Part shown: one piece after another, positions 5,597 to 34,991 of the stretch
Position numbering within the stretch: the first letter of the stretch is position 1
How the letters are laid out: each line of letters begins with the position of its first letter
DNA from: Deltaproteobacteria bacterium
GTDB taxonomy: Bacteria > Bdellovibrionota > FAC87 > UBA2466
Assembly (NCBI GenBank): GCA_900299195.1
Contig: OMIX01000041.1
Coordinates: forward strand, 1 to 35,799
Direction: 5' to 3'
Length of the DNA: 35,799 bases
The notes under the pieces: generated by a model
What the model saw: only the letters and a program-made list of their open reading frames with translations
Told to the model about the DNA's origin: nothing
The model's database searches: none
Position numbers and translations under genes: made by a program

Positions 5597-5720
5597 TCAT
5601 TCACTCAAATTAATTTCTCTTTGATTCTACTCTTTTACCTGATAATTTTTATGTTTTGCAAAGAAATTAAAAGGTCGGGGCGCTAGCTCGAACGGGCGGT
5701 TTACCTGGGGAGTAGCTGAA

Positions 5721-6536
5721 ATGTCTACAGGTTCGCAGTTATCTTTGTTAATTCCTTTTTTTAACGAGAGGGACAATCTTCCGTTTCTTTTTGAGAGTAT
5801 TTTACGGGTTTCATGGCCCTGGCCCATCGAAATGGTTTTAGTAGATGATTGTTCCCGAGATGGGTCTTGGGAGGTTCTTCGACAGGTTCTCAATCAGAAG
5901 CAGAAAGAGTTACAAGAGAGGAACATTCAATGCGTGACTTTCCGTCACGATGTTAATCGAGGAAAAGGTGTTGCGGTTCATAAAGCGATTTCGTTGTCTG
6001 CAGGCCAAGTTTTGATTGTTCAGGATGCGGATGGAGAATACGATCCGTGTGAGATTCCCAAATTGGTAAATCCTATTTTAGAGGGAAGAGCGGATGTTGT
6101 TTTTGGAAGTCGATTTCGCCAAAATGTAAATCAGGCGCATCGTACTTATCATTATTTGGTCAATCGCTTTCTCACTTTGCTCAGCAATCTGGCGAGTGGT
6201 CTGCATCTGACCGATATGGAAACTTGCTATAAAGCCTTTCGAGGGGATATTCTTCGAAGTATTCAGCTAAGGAGCAAGAGGTTTGGATTTGAACCTGAGA
6301 TCACAGCTCATTTGGCACGTCTCAAGTTGATTGTTTGGGAGTTGCCGATTAGTTACTATCCGAGAAGTTACATCGAAGGTAAAAAGATCACTTGGAAAGA
6401 TGGCCTTGCAGCTTTGTGGCACATTATCCATTTTAATTTCTTTTGTTCCTACGAAGATAGGTTTTTCTCTTCGATGCCTAAGAGATTCTTATTGAAAAAA
6501 TACGCTTCTAGAGTCCCACTCAAAAATCAAACTTGA
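5721..6536 (+). CDS. GT2 family glycosyltransferase, dolichyl-phosphate glucose/mannose synthase-like
   Basis: A 271-residue cytoplasmic-side GT-A enzyme with the full DPM1-type signature: LLIPFFNERDNLPFL at the start, VDDCSRDGSWE near residue 41, the metal-binding QDADGEYDP, then TDMETCYKAFRGDIL and RFGFEPEITAHLARL. These motifs are typical of synthases that place glucose or mannose on polyprenyl phosphate. No C-terminal membrane domain is present, so it probably works at the membrane surface. A GGGGAG ribosome-binding site precedes the ATG. The gene is divergent from the GT-C pair and convergent with the exported protein gene ending at 6565. It is a different clade from the GT2 enzyme at 2103, whose acidic motif differs, so the two probably handle different sugars or acceptors. 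Confidence 0.88.
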   Translation: MSTGSQLSLLIPFFNERDNLPFLFESILRVSWPWPIEMVLVDDCSRDGSWEVLRQVLNQKQKELQERNIQCVTFRHDVNRGKGVAVHKAISLSAGQVLIVQDADGEYDPCEIPKLVNPILEGRADVVFGSRFRQNVNQAHRTYHYLVNRFLTLLSNLASGLHLTDMETCYKAFRGDILRSIQLRSKRFGFEPEITAHLARLKLIVWELPISYYPRSYIEGKKITWKDGLAALWHIIHFNFFCSYEDRFFSSMPKRFLLKKYASRVPLKNQT

Positions 6537-6564
6537 AATCAAACCTATTCAAAAAAGTTTTTAT

Positions 6565-7080
6565 TTAGTTAAACCCGTAGTTGTAGGTGGTTTTTTTTCC
6601 TGAACGATCGACGATTGCCCAAAAAATATGATCGGAAAGCGTGGGTATTTTGAGTCGAATGATCCAGTTTTTAGTTAAGGATTCACCTCTCTCAGGTTCT
6701 TGGCCCAAAGAAACAAAAGTAATGGTGGAGGTAGGCTGATTAAGATGAGCAGAAAGAAGTCGCCTAGCTTTTCTTAGGACTTGAGCGTCTTGAGCTGCAG
6801 TTTCAGGGAGATTTAACTCCTCTAAGGCTTGTTCGGTAGCTAAGGCCAAAGGGCTCTCCACATCTGAGCTGTCTTTTAAAAAACTTTCGATGGCTAGAAT
6901 CGCTGCGTTTTCTGCTGTTACAGTTCCAGAAAAGGCTTTCTCCTGTTTTTGTGCTTCTTCGACTCTTAGATCATTCCGAACTTTGTCTAATCGAAATCTC
7001 GCCACGGGAGAACTTAAAACAGCGTAGTGGCCAAACAGGGAACACGAACTAAGTATCAGGGCTAAGCCAAGCTTTCTCAT
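6565..7080 (-). CDS. Exported protein of unknown function
   Basis: I chose the ATG at 7080 (171 residues, MRKLGLALIL) because AAGGAG at 7087-7092 lies six bases upstream; an ATG at 7083 and a longer in-frame start at 7125 are possible but worse placed. The N-terminus is hydrophobic to about residue 25. It contains LSSC at residues 10-13, which could be a lipobox, although the segment before it is short. The middle is helical and charged. The end (NWIIRLKIP, HIFWAIVDRSGKKTTYNY) reads like a PepSY-type beta sheet, a weak resemblance. It is convergent with the GT2 gene and divergent from the 12-cysteine secreted protein gene. I do not recognise the family. Confidence 0.6.
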   Translation of the reverse strand: MRKLGLALILSSCSLFGHYAVLSSPVARFRLDKVRNDLRVEEAQKQEKAFSGTVTAENAAILAIESFLKDSSDVESPLALATEQALEELNLPETAAQDAQVLRKARRLLSAHLNQPTSTITFVSLGQEPERGESLTKNWIIRLKIPTLSDHIFWAIVDRSGKKTTYNYGFN

Positions 7081-7282
7081 CATCAACTCCTTAGAAAAGA
7101 GAGAACTCGATATCATAGGTGACACTAAGCGTCCAGGCTCGGTTGCGGGGAAGTTTCAAGTCTAATGGGAGGAGAGACTCAGGGAAAGCCTAATTACCTG
7201 GTTGTAGAGGGATTGTAACGTATTGAAAATAGGTTACTTAATCGCTTTTTTGGCGAATAGCCTTTCTGGGCGAAGTTCCAGA

Positions 7283-7312
7283 TTGATTTGATGCGTCATT
7301 TTTTGGTATAAA
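7283..7312 (+). promoter_or_regulatory. Probable sigma-70 promoter for the 12-cysteine secreted protein
   Basis: TTGATT (7283-7288), an 18-base spacer and TATAAA (7307-7312). The start site would be near 7319, about 29 bases before the ATG at 7348. Confidence 0.45.
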
Positions 7313-7347
7313 GCTCTAACTCAATAACTGTTTTCCATGGGGGACTC

Positions 7348-8619
7348 ATGAAATCGGTTCTATTTCTGTCGCTTTTACTCATCACTTCACAATTCGCTGT
7401 CGTAGAAAAGGCCTTGGCCTCTGAACCTGAACGTCATGAAAACAAAGCCGCTGATCTCGACAAGGAGATTTTAAAATATCAGTTCGATGCTCTTCTGTGT
7501 GCCGCATCTCCCATTGTGGCCAAAATCCCAGGAAGTTCTCATGTCCTTGAAGCTTCGAAATGCGCGCTTGTAGCTGGGTTGGGGGTGACCGAGATTGTTC
7601 GAAGTCTCACCGAATGTGCTCACATGAGGCACAGCCAAAATGACAGAGATTTTCTGGGGTGTTTGAAATCGGGTTCGTCCTATTTTGCCTCTAATAAAGA
7701 AGCCCTGGCTTGTCTTTTAGGAAACTCTCTTGAGAAGAGTGGCAAAAAAATGCTGCATCATTTGGGAATTGTAGGAGACATTGTGACCTGTAGTTTAACT
7801 GTCGCTCAAGGGGCTACGTTGCTGGTAGACACTACCAAAGCAGCTAATGCCGCTCGTCAGGAAGCTCGAAATTCGGCTGCTACTTTAGCGCAGACGATTG
7901 CATCTTTAAAAGGAGGTCGTCTTTACAACATGGGATTTTATCGAGGGTGTTTCAATGTAACGAACGTTTATCCTGGTGATGAAAACCGATGCGTTCATCT
8001 TTGTGAAAGTCAAAAACAGATGGGACGAGGAGCATTGGCGGGGGTTCTTAATGCTGAACAACAAGCCCACACGTTAAGAGCTTGCCAATCGGGATGTAAA
8101 GCGACCGAGGCAGTTCCCAACTCTTGGATCTACACCCTGTTTGTTTCTTCTGAACCTGGAGTAGAAAGAAAAGGTTGTGAAGCGGTGGTGAGTAAAGTGA
8201 AACATACTTTAGAGGGAGTCACTCAAACCAACTTCAGGGTTTTACCGTTGCCTGGGGTGAACGAGGGAAAATCGGAGCAACGCTTAGGTGCTTTTTTAGC
8301 GTGGAAACTCAGAATCACTGCGGCCTTAGACGCTATTGAACAACAGTGGAAAAATGTCAGAAAAACCCCAGGGGGTTTGGCCAAAACTGAAGACATCGTG
8401 GCTTTAGGAAATTCTGACACTGCGGAAGCAAAACTGATTAGCTCTGTCTTTGGAAATAAAGATTTGGGAGTTTACGCTTTTGCCTCTCATCAGACTGAGT
8501 TGCCCATTCTAGCAGCGTATCTTGACTCCACTCAAACTGGAGAAGTGGATGGTTGGATAAGCTTATCGGACATCTTGGCTTTTAAAGAAGAGATTAATCG
8601 CTACTATTACGGTGGATAG
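7348..8619 (+). CDS. Secreted 12-cysteine protein with a twin CX3C motif, function unknown
   Basis: A 423-residue exported protein. Residues 1-24 form a signal peptide with a likely cleavage site after KALA. The mature protein contains twelve cysteines, at 51, 72, 90, 105, 122, 148, 201, 215, 219, 246, 250 and 277, and none in the last 146 residues. Two CX3C pairs (CVHLC at 215-219 and CQSGC at 246-250) are 26 residues apart in a helical region and could staple a helical hairpin. The C-terminal part has LDSTQTGEVDGWISLSDIL, which looks like a calcium-binding loop but lacks the acidic residue at loop position 12. A G-rich ribosome-binding site (GGGGGA) precedes the ATG. The even cysteine number suggests disulfides, consistent with the VKOR-DsbA gene nearby. 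No family is recognised. Confidence 0.75.
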   Translation: MKSVLFLSLLLITSQFAVVEKALASEPERHENKAADLDKEILKYQFDALLCAASPIVAKIPGSSHVLEASKCALVAGLGVTEIVRSLTECAHMRHSQNDRDFLGCLKSGSSYFASNKEALACLLGNSLEKSGKKMLHHLGIVGDIVTCSLTVAQGATLLVDTTKAANAARQEARNSAATLAQTIASLKGGRLYNMGFYRGCFNVTNVYPGDENRCVHLCESQKQMGRGALAGVLNAEQQAHTLRACQSGCKATEAVPNSWIYTLFVSSEPGVERKGCEAVVSKVKHTLEGVTQTNFRVLPLPGVNEGKSEQRLGAFLAWKLRITAALDAIEQQWKNVRKTPGGLAKTEDIVALGNSDTAEAKLISSVFGNKDLGVYAFASHQTELPILAAYLDSTQTGEVDGWISLSDILAFKEEINRYYYGG

Positions 8620-9501: not shown

Positions 9502-10758
9502 TTATTTATGCAAACTTTCTTCAAGAGAAATTAACTTTTCTAGACTCTCGACGGTCACGGGAATGGTGATCAATTTTCCGTTGATGTAGATAGAAGGAGT
9601 GGCTTTCACTTTGAGTTGAGTTCCCTGTTCGATGTCTTCTGTGATTTTCTTGAGAGTTCGGCTATCTGATAAACATTCAGAAATAGCTTCTTTTGAGAAC
9701 ACCGGTTTTAATTTCTCGGAGATGTAATCGAACCCTTCTTTAATATCTTCGTCGGTCATATTTAAAAAGGCTTCATCATGAAAGTCCCAAAACTTACCTT
9801 TCATTTGAGCGCAGGCCGCCAAACGGGCTAGTTTACAAGCGTGAGCATGGAGTTGATACGGCAAATTGGGGTTGCAGGTGGAGTCTAGCGGAAAGTTTTT
9901 GAAAACAAAATGGACCCGTTTTTCAAAAAACTTTAAAGCGGTATGAAGCGTAAAAGCTGCTTTTCTACAAAAGGGACATTCGAAATCACTGAACTCGACA
10001 ATTTGAATAGGGCTATTGGGATTCCCCCAAGTTCCATCTCCGGAACTTACGGGTAACTTTTTCTGAGGGAGGTCTTTCCATTGAGCATAAAACTGTTGAA
10101 TCGAGTTTTCCACAAAAGTATTTGCCGAGCTTTTGCTTCGGACGAAATAGGGAAGTAGAGAAACCACACCGATAAAACTGATGACACTGATTCCTGCGTA
10201 AACCCATCGCATTCTAGGGATGGTTTGAAAGGTTTTGAAGTCTGGCTTTCTGAATACCCTTTTTAGTTTGTCTCTGAACTGTTTTTCCGAAATTCCAAGA
10301 TTTTTAATGTTCAGGGCCAAATGGCCACCCGTGCAAAGATAAGTTAAAAAACAAAGGATACAAAAGGTTTTAAGAATCAGGAGTTGAACTCCCAAAAAAA
10401 GAATCAAATTGTAAAGGGTGGCAGCGCTCGTCAACCAAGCCAAACACTGCTGAAGGGGTATGTAACACTTGTCTTTTTGAGTTACGAAAACCGCAGCTGC
10501 AAACAGTAGAAAAAAATACACAGCGCCCAGAGCCGCAATTGGAATTCCCAAAAACTCTGCATATCGGCTGACATTAACGGAATCGCAATCCATGAATTTA
10601 CCGAAAGAACAAAAGCTTGCTGATTCTTGGATTCCGCTTTCGAGTCGGGTATGATGAACAAATAGGTAAAGGCTAGTAGCCAAACCCATAAGAGAGAACA
10701 CTACTTGCCAAGCTGTGATATTTTTGAAAATTTTATGAATATTGAGTTGAACTTTCAC
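9502..10758 (-). CDS. VKOR-DsbA fusion: disulfide-forming membrane enzyme with a thioredoxin-like domain
   Basis: A 418-residue fusion that can both oxidise proteins and pass electrons to quinone. The first ~150 residues form a vitamin K epoxide reductase (VKOR) helical domain: the loop cysteine pair in SFCSFGKFMDCDS (about residues 50 and 58), the motif YAEFLGIPIAALG, and the quinone-side CILC (about 133-136). A further membrane segment at about 186-206 leads to a periplasmic DsbA-like domain with VEFSDFECPFC (active CPFC near 261-264) and the cis-proline loop KVKATPSIYINGK. The start is a GTG without a clear ribosome-binding site. Only 39 bases separate it from the divergent LOG gene. Exported Cys-rich proteins in this window are plausible substrates. 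Confidence 0.9.
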   Translation of the reverse strand: MKVQLNIHKIFKNITAWQVVFSLMGLATSLYLFVHHTRLESGIQESASFCSFGKFMDCDSVNVSRYAEFLGIPIAALGAVYFFLLFAAAVFVTQKDKCYIPLQQCLAWLTSAATLYNLILFLGVQLLILKTFCILCFLTYLCTGGHLALNIKNLGISEKQFRDKLKRVFRKPDFKTFQTIPRMRWVYAGISVISFIGVVSLLPYFVRSKSSANTFVENSIQQFYAQWKDLPQKKLPVSSGDGTWGNPNSPIQIVEFSDFECPFCRKAAFTLHTALKFFEKRVHFVFKNFPLDSTCNPNLPYQLHAHACKLARLAACAQMKGKFWDFHDEAFLNMTDEDIKEGFDYISEKLKPVFSKEAISECLSDSRTLKKITEDIEQGTQLKVKATPSIYINGKLITIPVTVESLEKLISLEESLHK

Positions 10759-19259: not shown

Positions 19260-19603
19260 GTATCAAAATAGAGTCTTCGGTGCCCCTTTCTGCAAAAAAG
19301 CTGTTGTGGTCTCGGCAAAGCCGCAAGTACCAACTGCTGGCCAATACTTTCAAGACACTGGGAGATTATTCGAGAGTTAGAATCGTTTCAGCTCTGGTTG
19401 AAGGTGAAAAGTGTCCTAGCGAAATCGCGGAGCGGGTAGATTTAAGTCCCTCTGCCGTAAGTCATCACTTAAAAATTTTACGTCGAGCTAATTTAGTTCG
19501 TGTTCGTAGGGAACATCGCCAAATTTTTTATGCTTTGGATGATCAACATATCAACGAGCTTTTTGAAGCGGGTGTTGAACATGTTGAGGAGTTGAGAATA
19601 TGA
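19250..19603 (+). CDS. ArsR/SmtB-family metal-sensing repressor with an alpha5 zinc-type site
   Basis: A 117-residue winged-helix repressor with the ArsR fold: LLANTFKTLGDYSRVRIVSALVEG in helices 1-2, then the recognition helix region EIAERVDLSPSAVSHHLKILRR and the wing LVRVRREHRQIFYALD. The C-terminal helix reproduces the SmtB alpha5 metal site exactly in spacing: Asp98-x-His100, then His111 and Glu114 (D-x-H-x10-H-x2-E). This pattern binds Zn(II) in SmtB and relatives and releases DNA. A lone Cys55 sits in the alpha3 region without the CxC of lead/cadmium sensors. The gene overlaps the cytochrome c-FTR1 permease gene by four bases (ATGA), so it probably regulates that gene and itself. No ribosome-binding site is seen. 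Confidence 0.88.
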   Translation: MRSSIKIESSVPLSAKKLLWSRQSRKYQLLANTFKTLGDYSRVRIVSALVEGEKCPSEIAERVDLSPSAVSHHLKILRRANLVRVRREHRQIFYALDDQHINELFEAGVEHVEELRI

Positions 19604-21501
19604 AAAGATTATTCCAAATATTGTGCTTGAGTTTTTTATTGGGCCCGAAATTAACCCTCTCGGCGCCAGAATCAGCTCGTAACATCATTCATCTTCTCAG
19701 TTATATCGCTTCCGATTATTCGGGTGCCGTTCAAAATGGAAAAGTGGTTTCAACTTCGGAGTATGAAGAACAGGTCGAGTTTTCCAAGTCAGTTGTGGAT
19801 ATGGCTAAAGTTGACTCAGAAATGAATCTTCATCCTGAAATTTTAAAAAGTTTAGAAGCTTTGAGAGGCCTCATTATTCATAAGTCCTCTGCAGAAAAAG
19901 TTCGGGAGACCGTCGAGCAGTCGCAAAACTTAATCTTTAAAATTTCAAGTGTTCAGCGAGCCCCGAGAAAATGGCCCAATATTACACATGGAAAAGAGAT
20001 CTACTCCAAAAACTGCACTCAGTGTCATGGAGTGAGTGGTCAGGGAGACGGTCCATCGGCTGGAAATTTTGATCCTAAACCTACCAATTTTTTAGATTCT
20101 AAAAGTGATTTTATTTCCCCATTTCAATTTTTTAATGCCATTCATTTAGGAGTTCCTGGAACTGCGATGTCAGCGTTTCAGTCCATTTCTGAAACCGAAA
20201 CTTGGGATTTGGCTTTTTACCTATCTTCATTAAGACACAAAAACAAAAATGTTGAAGCGGCTTTAACCCATCCATGGACTTTAGAGCAGGTGGCTTCTTT
20301 GTCGGATAATGAGCTTCGTAAAACTTTGACCTCAACTGAAAATGTCGAATCTGCCTTAACGTTGGCTAGAACATTTAATGTCTCTGAAGGAAGTGAAAAC
20401 TCTTTAGTTTCGCTAACTCGGGAAAATTTATTAGCCTCTTTCGACGCCTTCAAAACGAAAAATTTTGAATTGGCAAAGTCTAAGGCAATAGCCGCCTATT
20501 TGGACGGAATTGAACCCCTGGAGCCCAAATTAAGATTAAATGATTCTGAGTTTACCTTGGGGTTGGAGGAAAGCCTTGCTTTATATCGAAGACAAATTGA
20601 TGAGAGAGTTTCAGTCAGTGAACTAGAGAAAAGTCTTTCAAAGGCTTTAGATATGTTAGACCAAAGCTCTAAAGTTTTACAATCCAAACCGACTTCTTTC
20701 GGAGTTACCTTCGTAGTAGCTGCTGGTATTTTTTTGAGAGAGGCCTTAGAGGCCGCTCTTCTTTTGATCACTCTTCTTGGGGTAGTTCGTTCTTTAGGAA
20801 ACGTCAAAGCTGTTTACTCTATTCATTGCGGATGGGTATCGGCCGCCCTGGTGGGAGTTGTTTCCTGGTTTTTTTCAGGATGGTTGGTGAAGTTTTCGGG
20901 GTTGGGCAGAGAAGTCCTTGAGGGAAGTATTTCTCTTCTTGCTGTGTTGGTTCTTCTTTATTTTGGGTTTTGGTTGCACAGAAAAACAGAGATTGGAAAG
21001 TGGAGAGGGTTTATCAATCAGCTTGTGAAATCGGCGATTGATAATAAGAAGCTGGCGGGGTTAGCTGTGGTAGCGTTTATGGGAGTTTTTCGAGAAGCTT
21101 TTGAAACCGTTTTGTTTCTTAGAGCACTCTTATTGGAGTCCCCAGGTCAGGAATTGGCTTTAGGGCTGGGTGTTTTGGGTTCTTTTGGCGGGGTTTTGTT
21201 AGTTTCCTCTTATGCCGTGAAATACAGCGCGAAGTTGCCTTTGAAACAGTTATTTAGTTTGTCTTCTGTCATGATGTTGTTGTTGGCTTTTATTTTAATG
21301 GGAAAATCGGTTCATGCTTTCCAAGAAGCCGGTATTTTATCTGCGACTGTGGTGAGTGGTTTAGGTCGAATCGAATGGCTAGGGATCTTCCCCACACTTG
21401 AAAATCTTTTGCCGCAGATGGTTTTATTGACAGTAGCTTTTATGATTTGGCTCAAACCTAGATTGCAAAAAAATGGCAGTTCGTTTTCAGCAAATTCCTA
21501 A
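19600..21501 (+). CDS. Cytochrome c-FTR1 fusion: metal (iron or lead-type) permease
   Basis: A 633-residue fusion. Residues 1-21 are a signal peptide. A periplasmic region leads to a class I cytochrome c domain with heme site CTQCH (139-143) followed by GVSGQGDGPSA and a likely axial Met190 (GTAMSAF). A helical linker (about 225-365) precedes an FTR1-type oxidase-dependent permease domain with seven or so helices. It keeps the two REXXE motifs that bind iron: Arg380-Glu384 (REALE) and Arg498-Glu502 (REAFE). FTR1 moves ferric iron; PbrT-type relatives with a fused cytochrome are linked to lead uptake. Coupling to an SmtB-like sensor is unusual for iron. The final four bases overlap the convergent GT4 gene. 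Confidence 0.88.
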   Translation: MKRLFQILCLSFLLGPKLTLSAPESARNIIHLLSYIASDYSGAVQNGKVVSTSEYEEQVEFSKSVVDMAKVDSEMNLHPEILKSLEALRGLIIHKSSAEKVRETVEQSQNLIFKISSVQRAPRKWPNITHGKEIYSKNCTQCHGVSGQGDGPSAGNFDPKPTNFLDSKSDFISPFQFFNAIHLGVPGTAMSAFQSISETETWDLAFYLSSLRHKNKNVEAALTHPWTLEQVASLSDNELRKTLTSTENVESALTLARTFNVSEGSENSLVSLTRENLLASFDAFKTKNFELAKSKAIAAYLDGIEPLEPKLRLNDSEFTLGLEESLALYRRQIDERVSVSELEKSLSKALDMLDQSSKVLQSKPTSFGVTFVVAAGIFLREALEAALLLITLLGVVRSLGNVKAVYSIHCGWVSAALVGVVSWFFSGWLVKFSGLGREVLEGSISLLAVLVLLYFGFWLHRKTEIGKWRGFINQLVKSAIDNKKLAGLAVVAFMGVFREAFETVLFLRALLLESPGQELALGLGVLGSFGGVLLVSSYAVKYSAKLPLKQLFSLSSVMMLLLAFILMGKSVHAFQEAGILSATVVSGLGRIEWLGIFPTLENLLPQMVLLTVAFMIWLKPRLQKNGSSFSANS

Positions 21502-25146: not shown

Positions 25147-28100
25147 ATGAAAATGATGAACATGATAAAATCGGTTGCCTTAATGATTTTTGTGCTCTCC
25201 TTGTCAAGCTGTAAACCTATTGGAGAAATTTTTGAAGATAAGACAGCTCCGCAAGATACTTCAGTGAGTATCAATAGTGGTGCTGACCAGACAAACTCCC
25301 TTAGCGTGACTTTAACTCTGGAGGGTGATGATGCCACTCAGATGTTCATCACTAACACAGCCGGTTGTAGCTCAGGGGGAAGTTATGAAGCGTTTGCTGC
25401 GACTAAAGCTTGGACGTTAGGCACCAGCAATGGAACCGCCACTGTGTACGTGAAATTTAAAGATAGAGCAGGAAATGAGAGCGCATGCGTAAGTGACACG
25501 ATTGTCCACGACAATGTGGTCCCTACAGTATCCAATGTGACCTCTTCGACGGCTAATGGATCTTTTAAAGTGGGAGATACGATTTCTATTCAAGTGAACT
25601 TTAGTGAGAGTATGACCGTCACTGGAACTCCGCAGTTAACTCTTGAAACCGGAGCAACTGATCGGGCTGTGAACTACGCTACGGGTTCAGGCACTAGTAG
25701 CCTAACCTTTACATACACAGTTCAGTCGGGAGATACGAGCAGTGACTTAGATTATACCTCTACCACTGCTTTGGCTTTGAATAGTGGGACAATCAGAGAT
25801 GGAGCAGGAAATAATGCTACGTTAACTTTAGCGACACCAGGCGCTGCCAATTCTTTAGGAGCCAACAAAGCTCTTGTGGTTGATACTTCGGTACCCACTG
25901 TCTCGAGCGTAAACTCTTCGACTGCCAATGGTTCTTACAAAGTAGGAGATTCGATTTCTATCCAAGTGAACTTCAGTGAGAATGTGACAGTTTCAGGAAC
26001 TCCACAGTTAACGCTTGAGACTGGAGCAACCGACCGTGCCGTAAACTATGCTTCGGGTTCAGGCACTAGCACCCTAAACTTTACTTATACAGTACAATCT
26101 GGAGACACGAGCAGCGACTTAGATTACACATCCACTACGGCTTTGGCTTTAAATGGTGGAACCATTCGAGATGCCGCATTAAATAATGCGACTTTAACTC
26201 TAGCTACTCCTGGGACCGCTAATTCATTAGGGTTCAATAAAGCTCTTGTAGTCGACACTACAGCACCTACCGTAGCGAGCGTGAACTCTTCGACCGCCAA
26301 TGGTTCTTACAAAGTAGGAGATTCGATTTCTATCCAAGTGAACTTCAGTGAAAGTGTGACTGTGACAGGTACTCCTCAGTTGACCCTAGAAACTGGGGCA
26401 ACCGATCAGGTTGTGGATTGCGCTTCTGGAACAGGGACCAGTATGACCTGTACCTACACCGTTCAATCGGGAGATACGAGCAGTGACTTAGATTACACAT
26501 CCACCACTGCGTTGGCTTTAAATGGTGGGACCATTCGAGATGCGGCATTAAATAATGCCACTTTAACTTTGGCGACTCCAGGAGCTGCCAATTCTTTAGG
26601 AGCCAATAAAGCTCTTGTAGTTGATACTTCGGCACCCACTGTCTCGAGCGTAAACTCTTCGACTGCCAATGGTTCGTACAAAGCAGGAGATTCGATTTCA
26701 ATTCAAGTCAACTTTAGTGAAAGTGTGACTGTGACAGGGACTCCTCAGTTGACCCTAGAAACTGGGGCAACCGATCAGGTTGTGGATTGTGCGTCGGGAA
26801 CAGGGACCAGTATGACCTGTACCTACACCGTTCAATCGGGAGATACGAGCAGTGACTTAGATTACACTTCCACCACTGCGTTGGCTTTAAATGGCGGAAC
26901 CATTCAAGATGCGGCATTAAATAATGCTACGTTAGCTTTAGCGACTCCAGGAGCCGCTAATTCACTGGGAGCCAATAAAGCTATTGTAGTCGATACTTCG
27001 GCACCTACCGTTACCAGTGTAGATTCATCGACAGTCGATGGAACTTACAAATTTGGAGATACAATTTCGATTCAAGTGAACTTTAGTGAGAGTGTAACCG
27101 TCACAGGGACTCCTCAGTTGACTCTAGAAACTGGGACGACCGATCAGGTTGTTAATTGTGCGTCTGGAACAGGAAGCAGCATGACCTGTACCTACACCGT
27201 TCAAGCTGGAGATAATAGCAGTGATTTAGATTACACTTCCACCACCGCTTTGGCTTTAAACGGGGGAACGATTCAAGATGCGGCATTAAATAATGCGACT
27301 TTAACTTTAGCGACTCCAGGAGCTGCCAATTCTTTAGGAGCCAATAAAGCTCTTGTGGTTGACGGAGTGATTCCAACTGTGGCCAGTGTGAATTCTTCGA
27401 CAGCTAATGGAATTTACAAATCCGGAGATACAATTTCGATTCAAGTGAACTTTAGTGAGAGTGTGACCGTCACTGGAACTCCGCAGTTGACTCTAGAAAC
27501 TGGGACGACCGATCAGGTTGTTAATTGTGCGTCGGGAACAGGGACCAGTATGACCTGTACCTACACCGTTCAACCTGGGGATAATAATAGTGACTTAGAT
27601 TACACATCCACTACTGCTTTGGCTTTAAATGGTGGGACCATTCAAGATGCCGCATTAAATAATGCGACGTTAACTTTGGCGACTCCAGGAGCCGCTAATT
27701 CATTAGGGTTCAACAAAGCTCTTGTGGTCGACACTACAGCACCTACCGTAGCAAGCGTGAACTCTTCGACCGCCAATGGTTCGTACAAAGCCGGGGATAT
27801 TATTTCGATTCAAGTGAACTTTAGTGAGAGTGTGACCGTCACAGGGACTCCGCAGTTGACTCTAGAAACTGGGGCGACTGATCAGGTTGTAGATTGTGCG
27901 TCTGGAACAGGAAGCAGCATGACCTGTACCTACACCGTTCAGTCTGGCGATAATAGTGGTGATTTAGATTACACTTCCACCACTGCTTTGGCATTAAACG
28001 GTGGAACGATTCAAGATGCCGCATTAAATAATGCGACGTTAACTTTAGCGACTCCAGGAGCTGCTGATTCTTTAGGAGCCAACAAAGCTCTAGTGATAGA

Positions 28101-31047
28101 TACTATAGCGCCCACTGCACCTAGTATCGCTATTAACAACGGTGACCCTCAAACTAATTCAACCCTAGTGGATCTGACTTTGGCAGCAGCGGGGGCTTCA
28201 GAAATGTACATTACCAATACGGCGGGTTGCGCCAGTGGAGGCTCTTATGAAGCCTTTGACACTTCTAAATTAGCTTGGGTTCTAAGTCAGACCAGTGGAA
28301 CGGCAACTGTATATGCCAAGTTTAAAGACTTGGCTGGAAATGAAACTACTTGCGAATCTGACACTATCGAAATCGCTCCAAGAATTATAAACGTGACTTC
28401 GAGTTCACCCAACGGAATCTACACCACTGGGGAAACCATCAGCATTCAAGTTGTTTTTGAAAGTGCTGTGACTGTGTCTGGAACTCCAACCTTAACCTTA
28501 GAGACCGGAACGACTGATGCTGTGGTTAGTTATGCTAGTGGAAGCACCACCAATACGTTGACCTTTAACTACACAGTGGCATCTGGTGAAAATAGCTCTG
28601 ATCTAAGCTACGTCAATACTTCTTCTTTATCTCTTCCCGGAGGAGCCACCATTAAGGTAGGAACGATTGATGTCAATACCACTTTGCCCACAGTGGGCGC
28701 TGCTGGCTCTCTTTCTGCGAATAAGGCTCTGGTAGTAGATACTGAACCTGTCGTAAGTTATGTGACTTCAAACAAAGCCAATGGCACCTACGGTCTAGGA
28801 GAAGTTATTCCTATTCATGTGGTGTTTAGTGAGAATGTTACGGTAAACGGAGTTCCACAATTAACACTAGAAACTGGCGTTTCAGATGCAGTGGTAACTT
28901 ACGTTCAAACTCTCAATGGAAATACCTTAGTCTTTAATTACACGGTAGCTGCGGGTCATGAGAGCTCTGATTTGGATTATAAATTAACTAGCTCTCTAGC
29001 TCTCAACGGAGGAACGATTCGAGATTCAGCTTCTAACGACGCCGATATCACATTGCCGGCAGTGGGAGGCGCTAACTCGCTCGGCGGACAAAAAGCTCTT
29101 GTCATTGATACGACTCCTATTATTACAAATGTCACCTCATCCACTCCGAATGGAACTTATGTAGCGGGTAATGCTATTGCCGTGGATTTCGAATTTAGCG
29201 AATCGGTGACCGTCACAGGTACACCTACTTTAACTATGGAAACTGGTGCCACCGATCGTACGATCAATTGTGCATCTGGAACTGGAACTACCATGACCTG
29301 TACCTATACGGTTCAAAGTGGAGACACCAGTCTTGATCTAGATTATGTCGCGGGTTCACTCACTTTAGGAGGGGGAGTATCTATTAAAGATGCAAGCAAC
29401 AATGATCTTGATTTAAGTTCATTGCCAGTACCAGGTGCTGCCCATTCTCTTTCTGCTAATAAAGCTATTGTGATAGACCCTGTTCCTGTGGTTACCAATG
29501 TGACCTCAAGCTCGGCCAACGGAACCTACGCGGCTGGAACTGTGATTCCCATCCAAGTGAGCTTTAGTGAAGATGTGAGTGTGGGGGGAGCTCCCACTCT
29601 TACTTTGGAAACGGGTGCAAGTGATGCGGTGGTGACTTATAGCTCGGGTAGTGGTTCTTCGACGCTCACATTCAACTATACAGTGGGAGCCACAGATTCC
29701 TTCACCGATTTGGATTATGTCACAACCACTTCTCTAGATCTAAATGGGGGAACGATTGAAAGCGCTACTTTGCAAGCTGCAACTTTAACACTGGCCGCTC
29801 CGGGAGCGTCAGGCTCTTTAGGAAATAACAAAACCTTCAAAAGTCTGTTCCGAGGCAGTTTGGCAGGTGCTAGTGTTGATAATGAGGCTTTTGGTTCAGT
29901 GTTGGCTTCGGGAGATCTGAATGGAGATGGCAAACCTGATTTAGCTGTAGGATTTCCGAATTACAACGGAGGTGATGGTAGGGTGATTGTCTATGATGGC
30001 ACTGACCTCACCACTTCACTATTAACCATTACAGGAAGCTCCGGAGAAAATTTAGGTGCTGCCTTAGCTTTCGCAGATGTGGATAACGACACTAAGTATG
30101 ATTTGATTGTGGGTAGTCCGTTATCAGATGGTGCCGGAACCGATCGAGGTAAAGTTGAGGTATATAGCGGTGATACCGGATTGTTACTTTACTCTATCTT
30201 AGGTTCTGCGGATGGCGACAAGTTAGGTAGCTCTGTTTCTCGATTGGGTAATATCGATGGTTCCTCTGGTGAGGAGTTCATTGTGGGAATCCCCTTTGCA
30301 GATGTGAGTGCAAAAACCGATGCAGGTATGGCCAAAGTTTACAAGGGGGCTGATGGTAGTCCCTTCACCTCGATTTCAGGAAACGAGGCGAATGCTCGAT
30401 TGGGCAGTAATGTTTCGGGTGTTGGAGATGTGGACAATGATGGCACTGCTGATTTCATGATTGCTGAGACCCACGCTGCTGCGGGGGGTACTGCACGAGG
30501 TAGGGTTCGAGTTTACAGCGGAGATGACTTGAGTGTTCTCTACGTCAAACTTGGAACTGATGATAACGATCACTTCGGAGCGTCCTTAGCAGGTGGAGCC
30601 GATGTCAACAATGACGGTCGCGTTGATTTTATGATCGGTTCTCCAGACGCGGATGGAGCCGGCACCGATCGGGGCCAAGTGATCGTGTATAGCGGAGTCG
30701 ATGGTAGTGTGCTTTACACCAAAACGGGTTCTGCAAATAACGATCAGCTAGGGTACTCCATTGCTCTGCTAGGAAATGTGGATGGAGCTGTGGGAAATGA
30801 TTTTATCATTGGTATTCCTGGCGCAGCCGGGGGAGGAACCAGTAGAGGTCAAACTAAGGTTTTTAGTGGTGACACTGGGAATGTATTTTATACTCTGAAT
30901 GGAGATGAAGACAACGGAGCTTATGGTCGTGCTGTCATAGGGCTCACTCCAGGAATCGAAGCCGATACCGAGGATGACTTTGCAGTGGGAGCCCCTTTAG
31001 TAGATGGTGCTGGAACCGACCGAGGTAAAGTTTTTGTTTACCGGTAG
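25147..31047 (+). CDS. Giant surface lipoprotein with Ig-like repeats and a seven-repeat FG-GAP propeller
   Basis: A 1966-residue lipoprotein. The signal ends in LSSC (Cys22). Residues ~35-125 form an Ig-like domain; eleven ~123-residue Ig-like units follow: seven near-identical at 126-988, another first-type domain at 989-1077, and four diverged units at 1078-1570. Each has ANGxYxxGD-IxIQVxFSE, a TPxLTLETG strand and SLGxNKAxVxD. From about 1572 to the end are seven FG-GAP repeats with calcium-type loops (GDLNGDGKPD, ADVDNDTKYD, GDVDNDGTAD, ADVNNDGRVD) and GAGTDRG phrases, as in integrin alpha chains. It is a probable adhesin or prey/surface-binding protein. AGGAG lies in the upstream gene's stop region. 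It overlaps the convergent kinase by 10 bases. Confidence 0.9.
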   Translation: MKMMNMIKSVALMIFVLSLSSCKPIGEIFEDKTAPQDTSVSINSGADQTNSLSVTLTLEGDDATQMFITNTAGCSSGGSYEAFAATKAWTLGTSNGTATVYVKFKDRAGNESACVSDTIVHDNVVPTVSNVTSSTANGSFKVGDTISIQVNFSESMTVTGTPQLTLETGATDRAVNYATGSGTSSLTFTYTVQSGDTSSDLDYTSTTALALNSGTIRDGAGNNATLTLATPGAANSLGANKALVVDTSVPTVSSVNSSTANGSYKVGDSISIQVNFSENVTVSGTPQLTLETGATDRAVNYASGSGTSTLNFTYTVQSGDTSSDLDYTSTTALALNGGTIRDAALNNATLTLATPGTANSLGFNKALVVDTTAPTVASVNSSTANGSYKVGDSISIQVNFSESVTVTGTPQLTLETGATDQVVDCASGTGTSMTCTYTVQSGDTSSDLDYTSTTALALNGGTIRDAALNNATLTLATPGAANSLGANKALVVDTSAPTVSSVNSSTANGSYKAGDSISIQVNFSESVTVTGTPQLTLETGATDQVVDCASGTGTSMTCTYTVQSGDTSSDLDYTSTTALALNGGTIQDAALNNATLALATPGAANSLGANKAIVVDTSAPTVTSVDSSTVDGTYKFGDTISIQVNFSESVTVTGTPQLTLETGTTDQVVNCASGTGSSMTCTYTVQAGDNSSDLDYTSTTALALNGGTIQDAALNNATLTLATPGAANSLGANKALVVDGVIPTVASVNSSTANGIYKSGDTISIQVNFSESVTVTGTPQLTLETGTTDQVVNCASGTGTSMTCTYTVQPGDNNSDLDYTSTTALALNGGTIQDAALNNATLTLATPGAANSLGFNKALVVDTTAPTVASVNSSTANGSYKAGDIISIQVNFSESVTVTGTPQLTLETGATDQVVDCASGTGSSMTCTYTVQSGDNSGDLDYTSTTALALNGGTIQDAALNNATLTLATPGAADSLGANKALVIDTIAPTAPSIAINNGDPQTNSTLVDLTLAAAGASEMYITNTAGCASGGSYEAFDTSKLAWVLSQTSGTATVYAKFKDLAGNETTCESDTIEIAPRIINVTSSSPNGIYTTGETISIQVVFESAVTVSGTPTLTLETGTTDAVVSYASGSTTNTLTFNYTVASGENSSDLSYVNTSSLSLPGGATIKVGTIDVNTTLPTVGAAGSLSANKALVVDTEPVVSYVTSNKANGTYGLGEVIPIHVVFSENVTVNGVPQLTLETGVSDAVVTYVQTLNGNTLVFNYTVAAGHESSDLDYKLTSSLALNGGTIRDSASNDADITLPAVGGANSLGGQKALVIDTTPIITNVTSSTPNGTYVAGNAIAVDFEFSESVTVTGTPTLTMETGATDRTINCASGTGTTMTCTYTVQSGDTSLDLDYVAGSLTLGGGVSIKDASNNDLDLSSLPVPGAAHSLSANKAIVIDPVPVVTNVTSSSANGTYAAGTVIPIQVSFSEDVSVGGAPTLTLETGASDAVVTYSSGSGSSTLTFNYTVGATDSFTDLDYVTTTSLDLNGGTIESATLQAATLTLAAPGASGSLGNNKTFKSLFRGSLAGASVDNEAFGSVLASGDLNGDGKPDLAVGFPNYNGGDGRVIVYDGTDLTTSLLTITGSSGENLGAALAFADVDNDTKYDLIVGSPLSDGAGTDRGKVEVYSGDTGLLLYSILGSADGDKLGSSVSRLGNIDGSSGEEFIVGIPFADVSAKTDAGMAKVYKGADGSPFTSISGNEANARLGSNVSGVGDVDNDGTADFMIAETHAAAGGTARGRVRVYSGDDLSVLYVKLGTDDNDHFGASLAGGADVNNDGRVDFMIGSPDADGAGTDRGQVIVYSGVDGSVLYTKTGSANNDQLGYSIALLGNVDGAVGNDFIIGIPGAAGGGTSRGQTKVFSGDTGNVFYTLNGDEDNGAYGRAVIGLTPGIEADTEDDFAVGAPLVDGAGTDRGKVFVYR
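25522..28110 (+). repeat. Seven in-frame tandem repeats (two of 372 bp, five of 369 bp)
   Basis: Repeat boundaries at the Pro codon of each unit fall at 25522, 25894, 26266, 26635, 27004, 27373 and 27742, ending at 28110. The first two units are 372 bp, the rest 369 bp. They are highly similar at DNA level and remain in frame, so recombination could add or drop units without breaking the gene. Confidence 0.92.
28378..29841 (+). repeat. Four diverged copies of the same Ig-like unit
   Basis: Units start at 28378, 28747, 29116 and 29485; the first three are 369 bp. They keep the same protein pattern as the upstream tandem block but have drifted at DNA level, and are separated from it by one different Ig-like domain (28111-28377). 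The end of the last unit is approximate. Confidence 0.85.
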
Positions 31048-32465
31048 GGGTGTTTAGGAACTTCAACGCCCACTTCAGGAACCGAAATCGTTATTTGAGT
31101 TCCTTGGTTGACGTTCGATTCAATGTTAATCATTCCGCCCCATTTCTCAACAGTCTGATGGGCATGGAATAATCCCAACCCAAGCCCTTTGGGTTTCCCA
31201 AACGAAACTCTTTCTCGCCCCAGTTTCTTTAAAACCGTTTCTGGAATGCCTTTACCATTGTCACTGATCTGAAGATAATTGACGGACTGATTTCTTCTCA
31301 GTCGAACTTCGATAGATCCCTCGGTCTCGACAGACTCCATTGCATTATCTATGAGATTTGAGACGACTCGAGAAAATTCCAAAGTGTCTATTGAAGTCAC
31401 AAAATCATTTCCATCCAGGATCGATTCGAGTTTGAGTCCACTCTCCAGTCTCTGACGATACAATATTTTCTTTTCAGCTAGAATATTGTCCAGCACTGTT
31501 TTGAGGTTTTTCTCTCTTCCGGAGTCATTCCGATCAGAAGAAAGGAGCTCTTTTCGTGCATGGACAAGGCTATTGCAAATGTCAGTGATTCGATTCACAG
31601 CACCTAGAATGAGCGACTGATGGGTTTTGGGTAAAAGGGAAAGATCTTGCGTAACGACTCCCAGTGCCATCAGCGGAGAGCGAATGTCATGGGCCACCTG
31701 AGAAGTGATTTTCAAAGTCGCTTCGACTTCTTTCTTTTTTGCTTCTACTTCAGCCGATGAGGCTGCACGCTTCATCAAATCGTCGTAGCCCTCATAAAGT
31801 TCTTGCACTTCGCTCGCCGCATTGGGATTGACTCTAGGGGTAATCTGGGATTGAGAGAAATCAAAAGCGAGCATGCTTTTGTGTAGATTCTGGATAGGTT
31901 CAGTCACATCTGTCTTCACTGCGAAAACCAAAGAACGAAGGGCGTTGTTAAGAAAAATCAATGAAAGTGCCCAAATGAAAAGTGAAACCAAAATCACTAA
32001 ACCCAAAGCGATGGGTTTGAGAGCAGCTGTACAAGACATTTCTCCCATGAACTTTCCACCCAAAAAAAGGTTCTCGTGAAAAGTTAATTGAAAATTTCTA
32101 AATGAAAACCTGACTTCACTGATGAGTTCCTCTGCATGTTTTCCATTGCCTGTAATCTTTTGTTTTTGAGAGTCAGAAATCAAAACCGAGTAATTTCCAT
32201 AGGTAGGCTGCAAACTATTGATCTGTTGGGCTCTGAATTCTACTGCAGCGTTATTTTTGATAAAAAGAGCCTCTTCAATTTTTGGAGTGTTCTCATGAAT
32301 CCAACCATTCAAAGCGAGAGAAATCTGGCTCATCAAATAATAATAAACAAGAACAGAGAAGCTAATTGAAAAAGAACCTAAAAGCACAGCCGCTAACACC
32401 ATCAGAGATCGAAACTTTCTTTCAATCAAAGTCGCAATGGGAAGAGATTGAACCTTATTTAACAT
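31038..32465 (-). CDS. Membrane sensor histidine kinase
   Basis: A 475-residue kinase and last gene of a three-gene overlapping operon. Two membrane helices (about residues 20-45 and 151-172) enclose a periplasmic domain of ~100 residues; a linker with HAMP-like character and a coiled coil follow. The catalytic core has the H-box AHDIRSPL with phospho-accepting His259, N-box NLIDNAMES (Asn374), G1 DNGKGIP (Asp402) and G2 GLGLGLFHA. No response regulator is encoded in the window. The start overlaps the end of the periplasmic binding protein gene by 11 bases, suggesting that the binding protein presents its ligand to the kinase. Its 3' end overlaps the giant lipoprotein gene tail to tail. Confidence 0.93.
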   Translation of the reverse strand: MLNKVQSLPIATLIERKFRSLMVLAAVLLGSFSISFSVLVYYYLMSQISLALNGWIHENTPKIEEALFIKNNAAVEFRAQQINSLQPTYGNYSVLISDSQKQKITGNGKHAEELISEVRFSFRNFQLTFHENLFLGGKFMGEMSCTAALKPIALGLVILVSLFIWALSLIFLNNALRSLVFAVKTDVTEPIQNLHKSMLAFDFSQSQITPRVNPNAASEVQELYEGYDDLMKRAASSAEVEAKKKEVEATLKITSQVAHDIRSPLMALGVVTQDLSLLPKTHQSLILGAVNRITDICNSLVHARKELLSSDRNDSGREKNLKTVLDNILAEKKILYRQRLESGLKLESILDGNDFVTSIDTLEFSRVVSNLIDNAMESVETEGSIEVRLRRNQSVNYLQISDNGKGIPETVLKKLGRERVSFGKPKGLGLGLFHAHQTVEKWGGMINIESNVNQGTQITISVPEVGVEVPKHPYR

Positions 32466-33567
32466 AGCTATGCTTTCCCCCGAGAAACTTCAAAATCACG
32501 ACTTGACGATCAGGGCTTGGGTTCTTGGCATCTTTGTAAACGATGGGTCCAGTCGTCGTTTCAAAGGCTGTTGAAAGAAGAACTTTCTGAATTTCATTGG
32601 CATTAAGGTTGGCCTTTTTAAGTTTAGTTAAAACCTCCCTTGTCACTTTGAGAGCATCAAACATCATGGCTGCCCCTAAACTGTAAGGCTCCTCAGGATA
32701 AAGTTGTTTCCAGCCTTTTTTAAACTTTTTGTTTGTCGGCGTTTCGATCTCCTGGGCCCAGTGCGTGGCATAATAGGCTTTCAATTCAGGAAGGGAGCTT
32801 AATTTGGCTTCGAGAACTTCTCTCCCTCCCCATCCGTCACTTCCTAAAAATACGATTTGATTGTTCTCTGCATAAGCTAACCGGACGATCTCTGTGGCGG
32901 TGTTAACATAATCTGGAATAAAAATGAGGTTCGGCTTAAAGGCTTTGATTTGGTCCAATAAGTTTTTTTTATCTAGAGCTCCGCCTAAATATTTAACCTC
33001 GGATACTTGAGTTTGAGCGGAAAGGGCCGCTTTAAAAGCTGCAGAAAGTCCAACTGAATGAGCCGTATCTAAATTCGTACAGATCATGACTTTTTTCGGG
33101 CTAAATTTCTCGATTGAAAAACTGGCTAAAGACTTCGCTTGAGATGAATCAGAAAAAGTTGTTCGAAAAAAATGAGGATGTCCTAACGTAATCTCATCGT
33201 GAGTTGCCATGGGAGTGATGAAAATAATTTCCTGATTATCTAAAACTGGAATGAGAGACAGAGCTTGGTTGCTTTTTGAGAGTCCAATTAAGATTTTAGC
33301 TTTTGAATTTAAAATCAATTCAGCTAGTTCAACGGTCTTCTTCACTTCGCCTTGGTTATCATAAGTCACTACAGACAGCTCAGACTTGGCTTCAGGGAAA
33401 ACAGCAAAAAATACTTTCACCCCTTTTTCTAAATTAAAATCGGTCAAAGAAATATCTGAGGTGGGATTCGAAAGACTTGCCATAAAAGCCACTGGAATAG
33501 GCTGTGCCCCCACCGATTTTAAAAAAAGACCCAAAACAAAAAAGACTGTTTTAATAGTAGACTTCAT
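32455..33567 (-). CDS. Periplasmic ligand-binding protein, LivJ-like (Peripla_BP_6)
   Basis: A 370-residue exported type I periplasmic binding protein. Residues 1-21 are a cleavable signal peptide (ending KSVGA) without a lipobox. Family signs are PVAFMASLSNPTSD at the start of lobe 1, VTYDNQGEVKKTVELAELIL, then IIFITPMATHDE, HFFRTTFSD, and in lobe 2 FLGSDGWGG and EPYSLGAAMMFDALK. Such proteins bind branched-chain amino acids, amides or related small molecules. No ABC permease or ATPase genes lie nearby; instead the gene overlaps the upstream phytochelatin-synthase-like gene by four bases (ATGA) and the downstream kinase gene by 11, so a role as the sensing component of that kinase is more likely than transport. 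The ligand is unknown. Confidence 0.88.
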   Translation of the reverse strand: MKSTIKTVFFVLGLFLKSVGAQPIPVAFMASLSNPTSDISLTDFNLEKGVKVFFAVFPEAKSELSVVTYDNQGEVKKTVELAELILNSKAKILIGLSKSNQALSLIPVLDNQEIIFITPMATHDEITLGHPHFFRTTFSDSSQAKSLASFSIEKFSPKKVMICTNLDTAHSVGLSAAFKAALSAQTQVSEVKYLGGALDKKNLLDQIKAFKPNLIFIPDYVNTATEIVRLAYAENNQIVFLGSDGWGGREVLEAKLSSLPELKAYYATHWAQEIETPTNKKFKKGWKQLYPEEPYSLGAAMMFDALKVTREVLTKLKKANLNANEIQKVLLSTAFETTTGPIVYKDAKNPSPDRQVVILKFLGGKHSYVK

Positions 33568-34235
33568 GCACTTACCCTCAGAAGTCCCCTATAACTTCCC
33601 TGGTCCAGAGTATTCATGGCTCTTAAAAGATTTTTCATCTCAATCCAAAACCAGATATTTTTATGTCGAGCGACATCTAAAACCAAAACTCGGTCAGAGG
33701 CCTCATGGTAAGCTGCGATGGGGGAGAAGTGCCCCCCTCGGGATTCTATGACCTGACTATAATCAAAATTAACTAAGATAACCGCGTCTAAAGAAACCAA
33801 ATGGTCTCGAATAACACTTCTCAATGCCTCCTCTGTCAGTTCGGCATCTGCAAAAGTCTTTTTGCAGGAGAAAGAAAGAGATTCGATTAAATCTTTAAGC
33901 TCACTGAGTGAAAGCCCTGGAGCCACTCCAGGCACATTTCCCAAAATTTCCGTGAGAGGTTTTAAGGTTACCTTTAGGGGGTTCAACAAAGTGTGCTGAT
34001 GATATTTTTTCTCTTTTTGCAAAGTATTGAAAGCCACCACCGAACTCGCAATGGCGCAAAAAGTAGAATGGACCTGAGGCTCAAAGTTTTGAACGAGGTC
34101 AAAGAAAGGAGCTTTGTATTTAGCTTCTTCCAAGAAAAGGCGCCCTTGTAGACTGCTAAAGGGAATATGTTGGGGCAAAAGCCCACCCTTCACAGCCGGA
34201 GTTCCTATGAGATCAGAATTAAAACCCAAAAACAT
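33564..34235 (-). CDS. Phytochelatin synthase-like gamma-glutamylcysteine peptidase/transpeptidase
   Basis: A 223-residue papain-fold protein of the phytochelatin synthase family. The catalytic triad is clear: Cys60 in PQVHSTFCAIASSVVAFNTL, His169 in GGHFSPIAAYH and Asp187 in VLVLDVARHKN; the His-Asp spacing of 18 equals that of Arabidopsis PCS1 (His162, Asp180). Plant enzymes join gamma-Glu-Cys units from glutathione; short bacterial forms like this, without the Cys-rich C-terminal domain, mostly hydrolyse glutathione or its conjugates. No signal peptide is visible, so it should be cytoplasmic. An AGGG element lies upstream of the ATG. It is first in an operon with a binding protein and a histidine kinase, an unusual context that suggests signalling rather than simple metal detoxification. 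Confidence 0.9.
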   Translation of the reverse strand: MFLGFNSDLIGTPAVKGGLLPQHIPFSSLQGRLFLEEAKYKAPFFDLVQNFEPQVHSTFCAIASSVVAFNTLQKEKKYHQHTLLNPLKVTLKPLTEILGNVPGVAPGLSLSELKDLIESLSFSCKKTFADAELTEEALRSVIRDHLVSLDAVILVNFDYSQVIESRGGHFSPIAAYHEASDRVLVLDVARHKNIWFWIEMKNLLRAMNTLDQGSYRGLLRVSA

Positions 34236-34257: not shown

Positions 34258-34286
34258 ACTATACCATTTGATACCGTGATGTCTAA
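34258..34286 (-). promoter_or_regulatory. Probable promoter of the phytochelatin synthase-kinase operon
   Basis: On the minus strand TTAGAC (34286-34281), 17 bases, then TATAGT (34263-34258). The start would be near 34251, about 16 bases before the ATG at 34235. Confidence 0.4.
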
Positions 34287-34466: not shown

Positions 34467-34937
34467 ATGGCAACAACAAAACAATTCATGACTCGAATGG
34501 GGTTAGGAACTATCGCTGCTATTATTTTAGCAATGGGTGTGGGAACTCAAGCTTTAGCAACCGATTGCAATACCGATTGCGGAGCTAAAGCCAGATTCAC
34601 CTATCCTTGTCCGACGTTAAGAAATCCTGGTCGCAAATGCACAGGAAAAAATCCTGTCATCTATGGCGCTTGTGAAGTTGAAAGAGCTGTCGCGTGTGAC
34701 AACTTCTTAACCCAGGAACTCTTCGATAAGGCTAAGTCACTCTTAAGCAAAAACTTCAACGCGACCGTTTGGTCTCAATCCAATCCGGATGTTTACATGG
34801 CCGAATGTTACATCGCCGCTGAAAGCATCATAACACTGATCGGAGCTGAAGTTGGAGGGCCTTACGGAGCTGCCATTGCAGGCGGAGCAGGGCTGTTTGT
34901 AGCTCACCGTCTTTGTGAACAATCCACTAAATGGTAA
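34467..34937 (+). CDS. Small secreted protein with eight cysteines and a Gly-rich hydrophobic C-terminus
   Basis: The ATG at 34467 is chosen because AGGAGG (34456-34461) is five bases upstream and a signal peptide begins there (about residues 1-31, ending TQALA); the same frame is open upstream to 34287 but reads like non-coding leader. The mature ~125 residues contain eight cysteines (TDCNTDCG near the start, then FTYPC, GRKC, GAC, VAC, AEC and LC), enough for four disulfides. The C-terminal part has a Gly/Ala-rich hydrophobic run (ITLIGAEVGGPYGAAIAGG), which could be membrane-inserting. No family is recognised. It is monocistronic, followed by a strong terminator, and preceded by a 230-base leader region. 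A toxin, surface or binding protein are all possible. Confidence 0.7.
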   Translation: MATTKQFMTRMGLGTIAAIILAMGVGTQALATDCNTDCGAKARFTYPCPTLRNPGRKCTGKNPVIYGACEVERAVACDNFLTQELFDKAKSLLSKNFNATVWSQSNPDVYMAECYIAAESIITLIGAEVGGPYGAAIAGGAGLFVAHRLCEQSTKW

Positions 34938-34954: not shown

Positions 34955-34991
34955 AAGGGGATCTCTCTTGGAGATCCCCTTATTTCTTTCC
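34955..34991 (+). terminator. Rho-independent terminator of the eight-cysteine protein gene
   Basis: A perfect 11-bp stem, AAGGGGATCTC (34955-34965) with GAGATCCCCTT (34971-34981), closes a five-base loop and is followed by a T-rich tail (ATTTCTTTC). Confidence 0.8.

What the first reader, a model, noticed from the sequence alone, without database searches (positions are those of the whole stretch)
31038..34235. Overlapping operon of a phytochelatin-synthase-like enzyme, a periplasmic binding protein and a histidine kinase
Three minus-strand genes overlap by 4 and 11 bases: a triad-complete (Cys60, His169, Asp187) phytochelatin-synthase-like enzyme, a LivJ-like binding protein without transporter genes, and a two-helix histidine kinase without a response regulator. 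Seen: overlaps, motifs and absence of ABC or regulator genes in the window. Known: short bacterial PCS-like enzymes cleave glutathione or its conjugates. Inferred: the system senses a gamma-glutamyl, cysteine-containing or amino-acid-like ligand and links thiol-peptide processing to gene control. I know of no described system with this trio.
Basis: partly seen in the sequence, partly recalled or inferred. Interest (0 to 1): 0.75.

Follow-up and report, generated by a model that had tools for sequence, protein, structure and literature searches.

The report
Binding-protein sensor kinase pair with glutathione enzyme
Three overlapping bacterial genes encode a small glutathione-cutting enzyme, an amino-acid-type periplasmic binding protein and a sensor kinase; the last two are a recurring sensing pair in this bacterial group, while the enzyme's place beside them is found in this genome alone.

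Summary
Three minus-strand genes overlap by 4 and 11 bases: a PF05023 (phytochelatin-synthase-like) enzyme with an intact Gln/Cys/His/Asp active site, a LivJ-type Peripla_BP_6 protein with a signal peptide, and a two-helix histidine kinase. The binding-protein/kinase pair is a real recurrent module in this phylum (Bdellovibrionota). Adjacent pairs occur in three other genera, and as a paralogue in this genome and in 4 of 5 congeners. By analogy it works like known solute-binding-protein-activated kinases. The trio itself was found nowhere else. The enzyme gene is absent from all 13 same-genus and same-family genomes, the congener sharing the left flank lacks the trio, and related pairs have other upstream genes or none. 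The enzyme has no signal peptide, unlike nearly all its relatives in the phylum, so it probably acts on cytoplasmic glutathione, which this genome can make. It therefore cannot simply process the periplasmic ligand. A link between glutathione processing and the sensor is possible but unproven. An unexpected side result is a phytochelatin-synthase–gamma-glutamyltranspeptidase gene pair in another genus of the phylum, twice with a LivJ-like protein, and again on a Pantoea plasmid.

The parts
33564..34235 (-). PCS-like (PF05023) cysteine peptidase, 223 aa, no signal peptide, catalytic Gln54/Cys60/His169/Asp187
32455..33567 (-). LivJ-type periplasmic binding protein (Peripla_BP_6), 370 aa, N-terminal signal peptide; Ser99, Thr122 and Asp244 at the amino-acid head-group positions
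31038..32465 (-). sensor histidine kinase, 475 aa: two membrane helices, about 105-residue PAS/PDC-like periplasmic domain, DHp and HATPase_c, no receiver domain
34258..34285 (-). promoter-like site TAGACA-16-TATAGT with TG extension, just upstream of the PCS start (consensus match only)
33564..33567 (-). 4-bp PCS stop / PBP start overlap
32455..32465 (-). 11-bp PBP stop / HK start overlap; overlap of PBP and HK is also seen in most of the related pairs (14-20 bp)

Best explanation
The core is a solute-binding-protein-activated sensor kinase. A LivJ-type periplasmic protein binds a small amino-acid-like ligand. The loaded protein docks on the PAS/PDC-like periplasmic domain of the kinase and changes its activity, and an unlinked response regulator is then phosphorylated (related kinases carry their own C-terminal receiver-like domain; this one does not). 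A lineage-specific PCS-like gene sits in front of the pair, translationally coupled to it, and makes a cytoplasmic peptidase that cuts Gly from glutathione or its conjugates to give gamma-glutamylcysteine. Shown: gene overlap, families, active-site residues, recurrence of the pair, lack of a signal peptide on the PCS, glutathione synthesis genes. Inferred: docking, ligand class, phosphotransfer, enzymatic product, and any functional reason for the PCS to be there.
For: PBP-HK pairs adjacent or overlapping in G279 (39%/32% identity), G249 (31%/29%), G217 (PBP 30%, kinase cut by contig end), a paralogous pair in the own genome (C114), and pairs in congeners G283, G284, G286 and G287. The kinases align along their whole length, including the sensor region. 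The PBP model is LivJ/LivK-like (TM 0.83 to 3TD9). The kinase sensor model is PAS/PDC-like, closest to WalK and CitA domains (modest confidence). In 10 of 11 characterised SBP-kinase couples the genes are neighbours (PMC11113362). Residues corresponding to LivJ Ser79/Thr102/Glu226 are Ser99/Thr122/Asp244 and are invariant in the four closest PBPs (LivJ numbering from memory). GshA-type (C78) and GshB (C76) genes are present in the genome. Prokaryotic PCS cleaves Gly from GSH and GSH conjugates (PMC7411734).
Against: Neighbouring SBP and kinase genes are not always partners (no interaction was seen for AgtS or AruS; PMC11113362). No interaction, ligand or enzyme activity could be tested. The sensor-domain model rests on 4 sequences. 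The cognate response regulator is unknown. PCS-PBP coupling could be incidental operon membership.
Confidence: 0.62

Rival explanations
1. A dedicated thiol-peptide system, the first reader's idea: the binding protein senses glutathione, gamma-glutamylcysteine or a related peptide, and the kinase adjusts thiol-peptide processing by the PCS.
For: Overlapping three-gene operon. The PBP keeps alpha-amino-acid head-group positions, which a gamma-glutamyl end could use. Independent PCS neighbourhoods show gamma-glutamyl metabolism: PCS followed by GGT in 7 genomes of one genus, two of them with a LivJ-like PBP, and PCS-ggt on a Pantoea plasmid.
Against: No other genome with the trio was found. The closest pairs have a methyltransferase, a GNAT or nothing upstream. 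The PCS has no signal peptide.
Confidence: 0.2
2. Chance neighbourhood: a PCS gene landed in front of a working sensor pair and only shares its promoter; the functions are unrelated.
For: PCS absent from 13 same-genus and same-family genomes; the congener with the syntenic left flank lacks the trio (L170); variable upstream partners of related pairs.
Against: A 4-bp coupled overlap and common strand make shared expression likely; GC and GC3 of the three genes match the surroundings, so there is no sign of a very recent insertion.
Confidence: 0.4
3. The binding protein serves an ABC transporter encoded elsewhere (the genome has a complete LivJHMGF operon) and the kinase works alone.
For: LivJ-type fold; complete liv operon in contig C56 (L172).
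Against: That operon has its own LivJ (26% identical to this PBP). The pair recurs without transporter genes in several genera and as a paralogue.
Confidence: 0.12

Closest known systems
Solute-binding-protein/histidine-kinase couples (LuxP-LuxQ, TorT-TorS, AioX-AioS, BctC-BctE)
   Same: Adjacent genes for a periplasmic binding protein and a two-helix sensor kinase (PMC11113362, PMC5908839, PMC9602780)
   Different: The binding protein is a LivJ-type Peripla_BP_6; the sensor is a single PAS/PDC-like domain (TorS is all-helical, LuxQ has tandem PDCs); no response-regulator gene alongside; PCS gene in front
Nostoc Alr0975 / bacterial half-size PCS (PF05023)
   Same: Catalytic domain only, about 220 aa, same catalytic residues
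   Different: CA instead of CG after the catalytic Cys; no signal peptide, unlike most relatives in this phylum; sits in front of a sensor pair
LivJ/LivK branched-chain amino-acid binding proteins
   Same: Fold and head-group positions
   Different: Not next to LivHMGF; paired with a kinase
icd-[PBP]-PCS-GGT clusters in another genus of the phylum (G305, G309 and others)
   Same: PCS-like gene, in two cases next to a LivJ-like PBP
   Different: No kinase; PCS has a signal peptide; followed by gamma-glutamyltranspeptidase

Membership tests
Phytochelatin synthase-like, PF05023 | Profile match over the curated cut-off | tested here: met
   125.9 bits against cut-off 24.9
Phytochelatin synthase-like, PF05023 | Cys-His-Asp triad plus oxyanion Gln | tested here: met
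   Gln54, Cys60, His169, Asp187 align with Alr0975 and are invariant in 12 relatives
Phytochelatin synthase-like, PF05023 | Cleaves Gly from GSH, or makes phytochelatins | not testable with these tools
   needs an enzyme assay
LivJ-type binding protein, Peripla_BP_6 | Profile match, type I periplasmic-binding fold, signal peptide | tested here: met
   93.6 bits against 31.7; model pTM 0.86, TM 0.83 to 3TD9; hydrophobic N-terminus (by inspection)
LivJ-type binding protein, Peripla_BP_6 | Genes for LivHMGF in the same operon | tested here: not met
   no ABC genes in the window; the genome's liv operon is on C56
Sensor histidine kinase | H-, N-, G1- and G2-boxes, HATPase_c, two membrane helices | tested here: met
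   the HisKA profile itself is not hit, the H-box is seen by alignment
Complete two-component system | Cognate response regulator in the operon or fused | tested here: not met
   none in the window; receiver-like domain present in G279, G249, G354 and G013 kinases but absent here
SBP-activated histidine kinase couple | SBP and kinase genes adjacent and conserved as a pair | tested here: met
SBP-activated histidine kinase couple | Ligand-loaded SBP binds the kinase periplasmic domain | not testable with these tools
   needs ITC or two-hybrid
Conserved PCS-PBP-HK trio | Same three genes together in at least one other genome | tested here: not met
   not found among 369 phylum genomes nor in the genome-contig scan with the PBP alignment

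The most novel reading that the evidence does not exclude
A sensor system in which a LivJ-type binding protein and its kinase detect a gamma-glutamyl or thiol compound outside the cell and control, through one operon, a cytoplasmic PCS-like enzyme that breaks down glutathione; this would be the first two-component sensing of glutathione-type peptides coupled to a PCS-like enzyme.
Probability: 0.13. Interest if true: 0.55.

Novelty: new member of a known kind. Interest (0 to 1): 0.3.

Why it matters
The pair adds a LivJ-type family of binding proteins that appear to work with PAS/PDC-type kinases in an understudied phylum of largely predatory bacteria, with gene overlap that makes partner assignment easy to test. 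If the PCS turned out to be functionally linked, it would give bacterial PCS-like enzymes, whose role is poorly understood, a regulatory context. The PCS-GGT gene pairing seen on the way points to glutathione breakdown as their role.

Tried and rejected
Scanning genome contigs with the PCS protein alone found no relatives by the pattern method. The sensor half of the kinase is too divergent to find more than G279, G249, G283 and the own paralogue. PDB sequence search with the sensor region gave nothing. Recent transfer of the trio judged by base composition: GC and GC3 are like the neighbours, so there is no support. A PCS tree places the window's copy on a long branch beside the signal-peptide clade of other families in the phylum; position unsure because long branches meet. 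The G353 PCS and PBP on one contig belong to separate units: the PBP heads a liv operon several kb away, with genes between. No paper mentioning PCS, a histidine kinase and a periplasmic binding protein together was found. An earlier count said the paralogous pair is in 5 of 5 congeners; the correct count is 4 of 5 (not seen in G285).

Full report
What is there. Profile matches are far over the curated cut-offs. The PCS-like protein aligns over 19-215 with Nostoc Alr0975 (E 1e-22), with Gln54, Cys60, His169 and Asp187 in the catalytic positions. These residues are invariant in 12 PCS-like proteins of the phylum. The kinase has the H-, N-, G1- and G2-boxes. An extended -10 promoter-like site lies just upstream of the PCS start, and no transporter or regulator gene is in the window.

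The pair is the conserved unit. In 369 genomes of the phylum the closest PBP relatives are G279 (39%), G217 (30%) and G249 (31%). In G279 and G249 the next gene, overlapping it, is the closest relative of the kinase (32% and 29%). In G217 the next frame is the sensor part of a kinase cut off by the contig end. The own genome holds a second, paralogous pair on contig C114, and congeners G283, G284, G286 and G287 hold that pair too; it was not seen in G285. The kinases align through the sensor region with a shared W...K/RI.Q/E.LF.xN motif. A scan of genome contigs (about 85,000 species) with the PBP alignment returned only the same three genomes. Two further kinases of the family, in G354 and G013, sit next to SBP_bac_5 binding proteins instead, so pairing with a binding protein is a habit of this kinase family.

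The trio is not conserved. PF05023 is found in 58 of 369 phylum genomes but in none of the other 5 same-genus or 8 same-family genomes. I read the neighbourhoods of 50 PCS loci. None has a binding-protein-kinase pair; a LivJ-like gene is directly next to PCS in two (G305, G309). Upstream of the related pairs are a methyltransferase overlapping by 4 bp (G249), a GNAT (G217), or no same-strand gene (G279). In congener G283 the block to the left (cobalamin adenosyltransferase, FTR1-like, glycosyltransferase and methyltransferase genes, lipoprotein, Ig-like protein) is conserved, but the trio is not next to it. The GC and GC3 of the trio are like the flanks, so the arrangement need not be very recent.

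Compartments. Almost all PCS-like proteins of the phylum start with a clear signal peptide; this one does not (maximum 13-residue hydropathy 0.99 against mostly 1.4-3.2), and no upstream start could add one. The enzyme should be cytoplasmic. The genome has a GCS2-type ligase gene on C78, ATP-grasp GshB-family genes on C76 and C90 and a GGT gene on C56, so cytoplasmic glutathione is a plausible substrate. The PBP has a signal peptide and is periplasmic. Direct processing of the sensed ligand by the enzyme is therefore unlikely unless the ligand is imported.

How it probably works. The PBP model is a LivJ/LivK-type fold (pTM 0.86; best matches 3TD9 and 4GNR). The residues at the LivJ amino-acid head-group positions are Ser99, Thr122 and Asp244, and all are invariant in the four closest PBPs (LivJ numbering is from my own knowledge). 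An alpha-amino-acid ligand, which includes the glutamyl end of gamma-glutamyl peptides, is thus likely but unproven. The kinase periplasmic part is modelled as one PAS/PDC-like domain (pLDDT 75.6; best matches WalK and CitA domains, weak E-values). By analogy with LuxPQ, TorT-TorS, AioX-AioS and BctC-BctE, the loaded PBP should bind this domain. In 10 of 11 characterised couples the genes are neighbours, yet two neighbouring cases in Pseudomonas showed no binding (PMC11113362). Relatives in G279, G249, G354 and G013 carry a receiver-like C-terminal domain that this kinase lacks, so its partner regulator must be elsewhere.

Is it new. The PBP-kinase pair is a new member of a known kind. A PCS in front of it is an arrangement I could not find elsewhere or in the papers searched, but as a single-genome arrangement it does not establish a system. 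The side observation of PCS followed by GGT, in 7 genomes of one genus and on a Pantoea plasmid, is better evidence for what bacterial PCS-like enzymes do: glutathione breakdown, probably in the periplasm in those cases.

Noticed in passing
L099 (G309), L121 (G305), L111, L114, L115, L123, L138: PCS-like gene with signal peptide followed, usually overlapping, by gamma-glutamyltranspeptidase in seven genomes of one genus, mostly after icd; in G305 and G309 a LivJ-like binding protein lies between icd and PCS. Looks like a periplasmic glutathione-degradation operon.
   Followed up: partly
L181 (Pantoea sp. JZ29 plasmid NZ_CP045242.1): DsbB-like, PCS-like and ggt genes in a row, an independent PCS-GGT pairing in Enterobacterales.
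   Followed up: partly
window 25147-31047: 1966-aa Ig-like/FG-GAP repeat protein; the congener's version is 1280 aa (L170), so repeat number varies. Its stop overlaps the convergent kinase stop by 10 bp.
   Followed up: no
window 34467-34937: Small secreted cysteine-containing protein with an AGGAGG ribosome-binding site and a strong terminator (34955-34981), divergent from the trio; no relative in 19 related genomes.
   Followed up: partly
L101 (G354) 4243-7640, L102 (G013) 4706-8337: Kinases of the same family, with receiver-like domain, adjacent to SBP_bac_5 (peptide-type) binding proteins.
   Followed up: partly
window 19600-21501: FTR1 iron permease domain joined to a cytochrome c domain in one protein.
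   Followed up: no
window 9502-10758: VKOR domain fused to a DsbA-like thioredoxin domain.
   Followed up: no
L103 (G080) 3116-5380; L122 (G321): PCS-like domain at the C-terminus of long (about 690-750 aa) proteins with unrelated N-terminal parts.
   Followed up: no
L180 (Salipiger plasmid NZ_CP014600.1): PCS-like gene overlapping c-type cytochrome, multicopper oxidase and GMC oxidoreductase genes.
   Followed up: no
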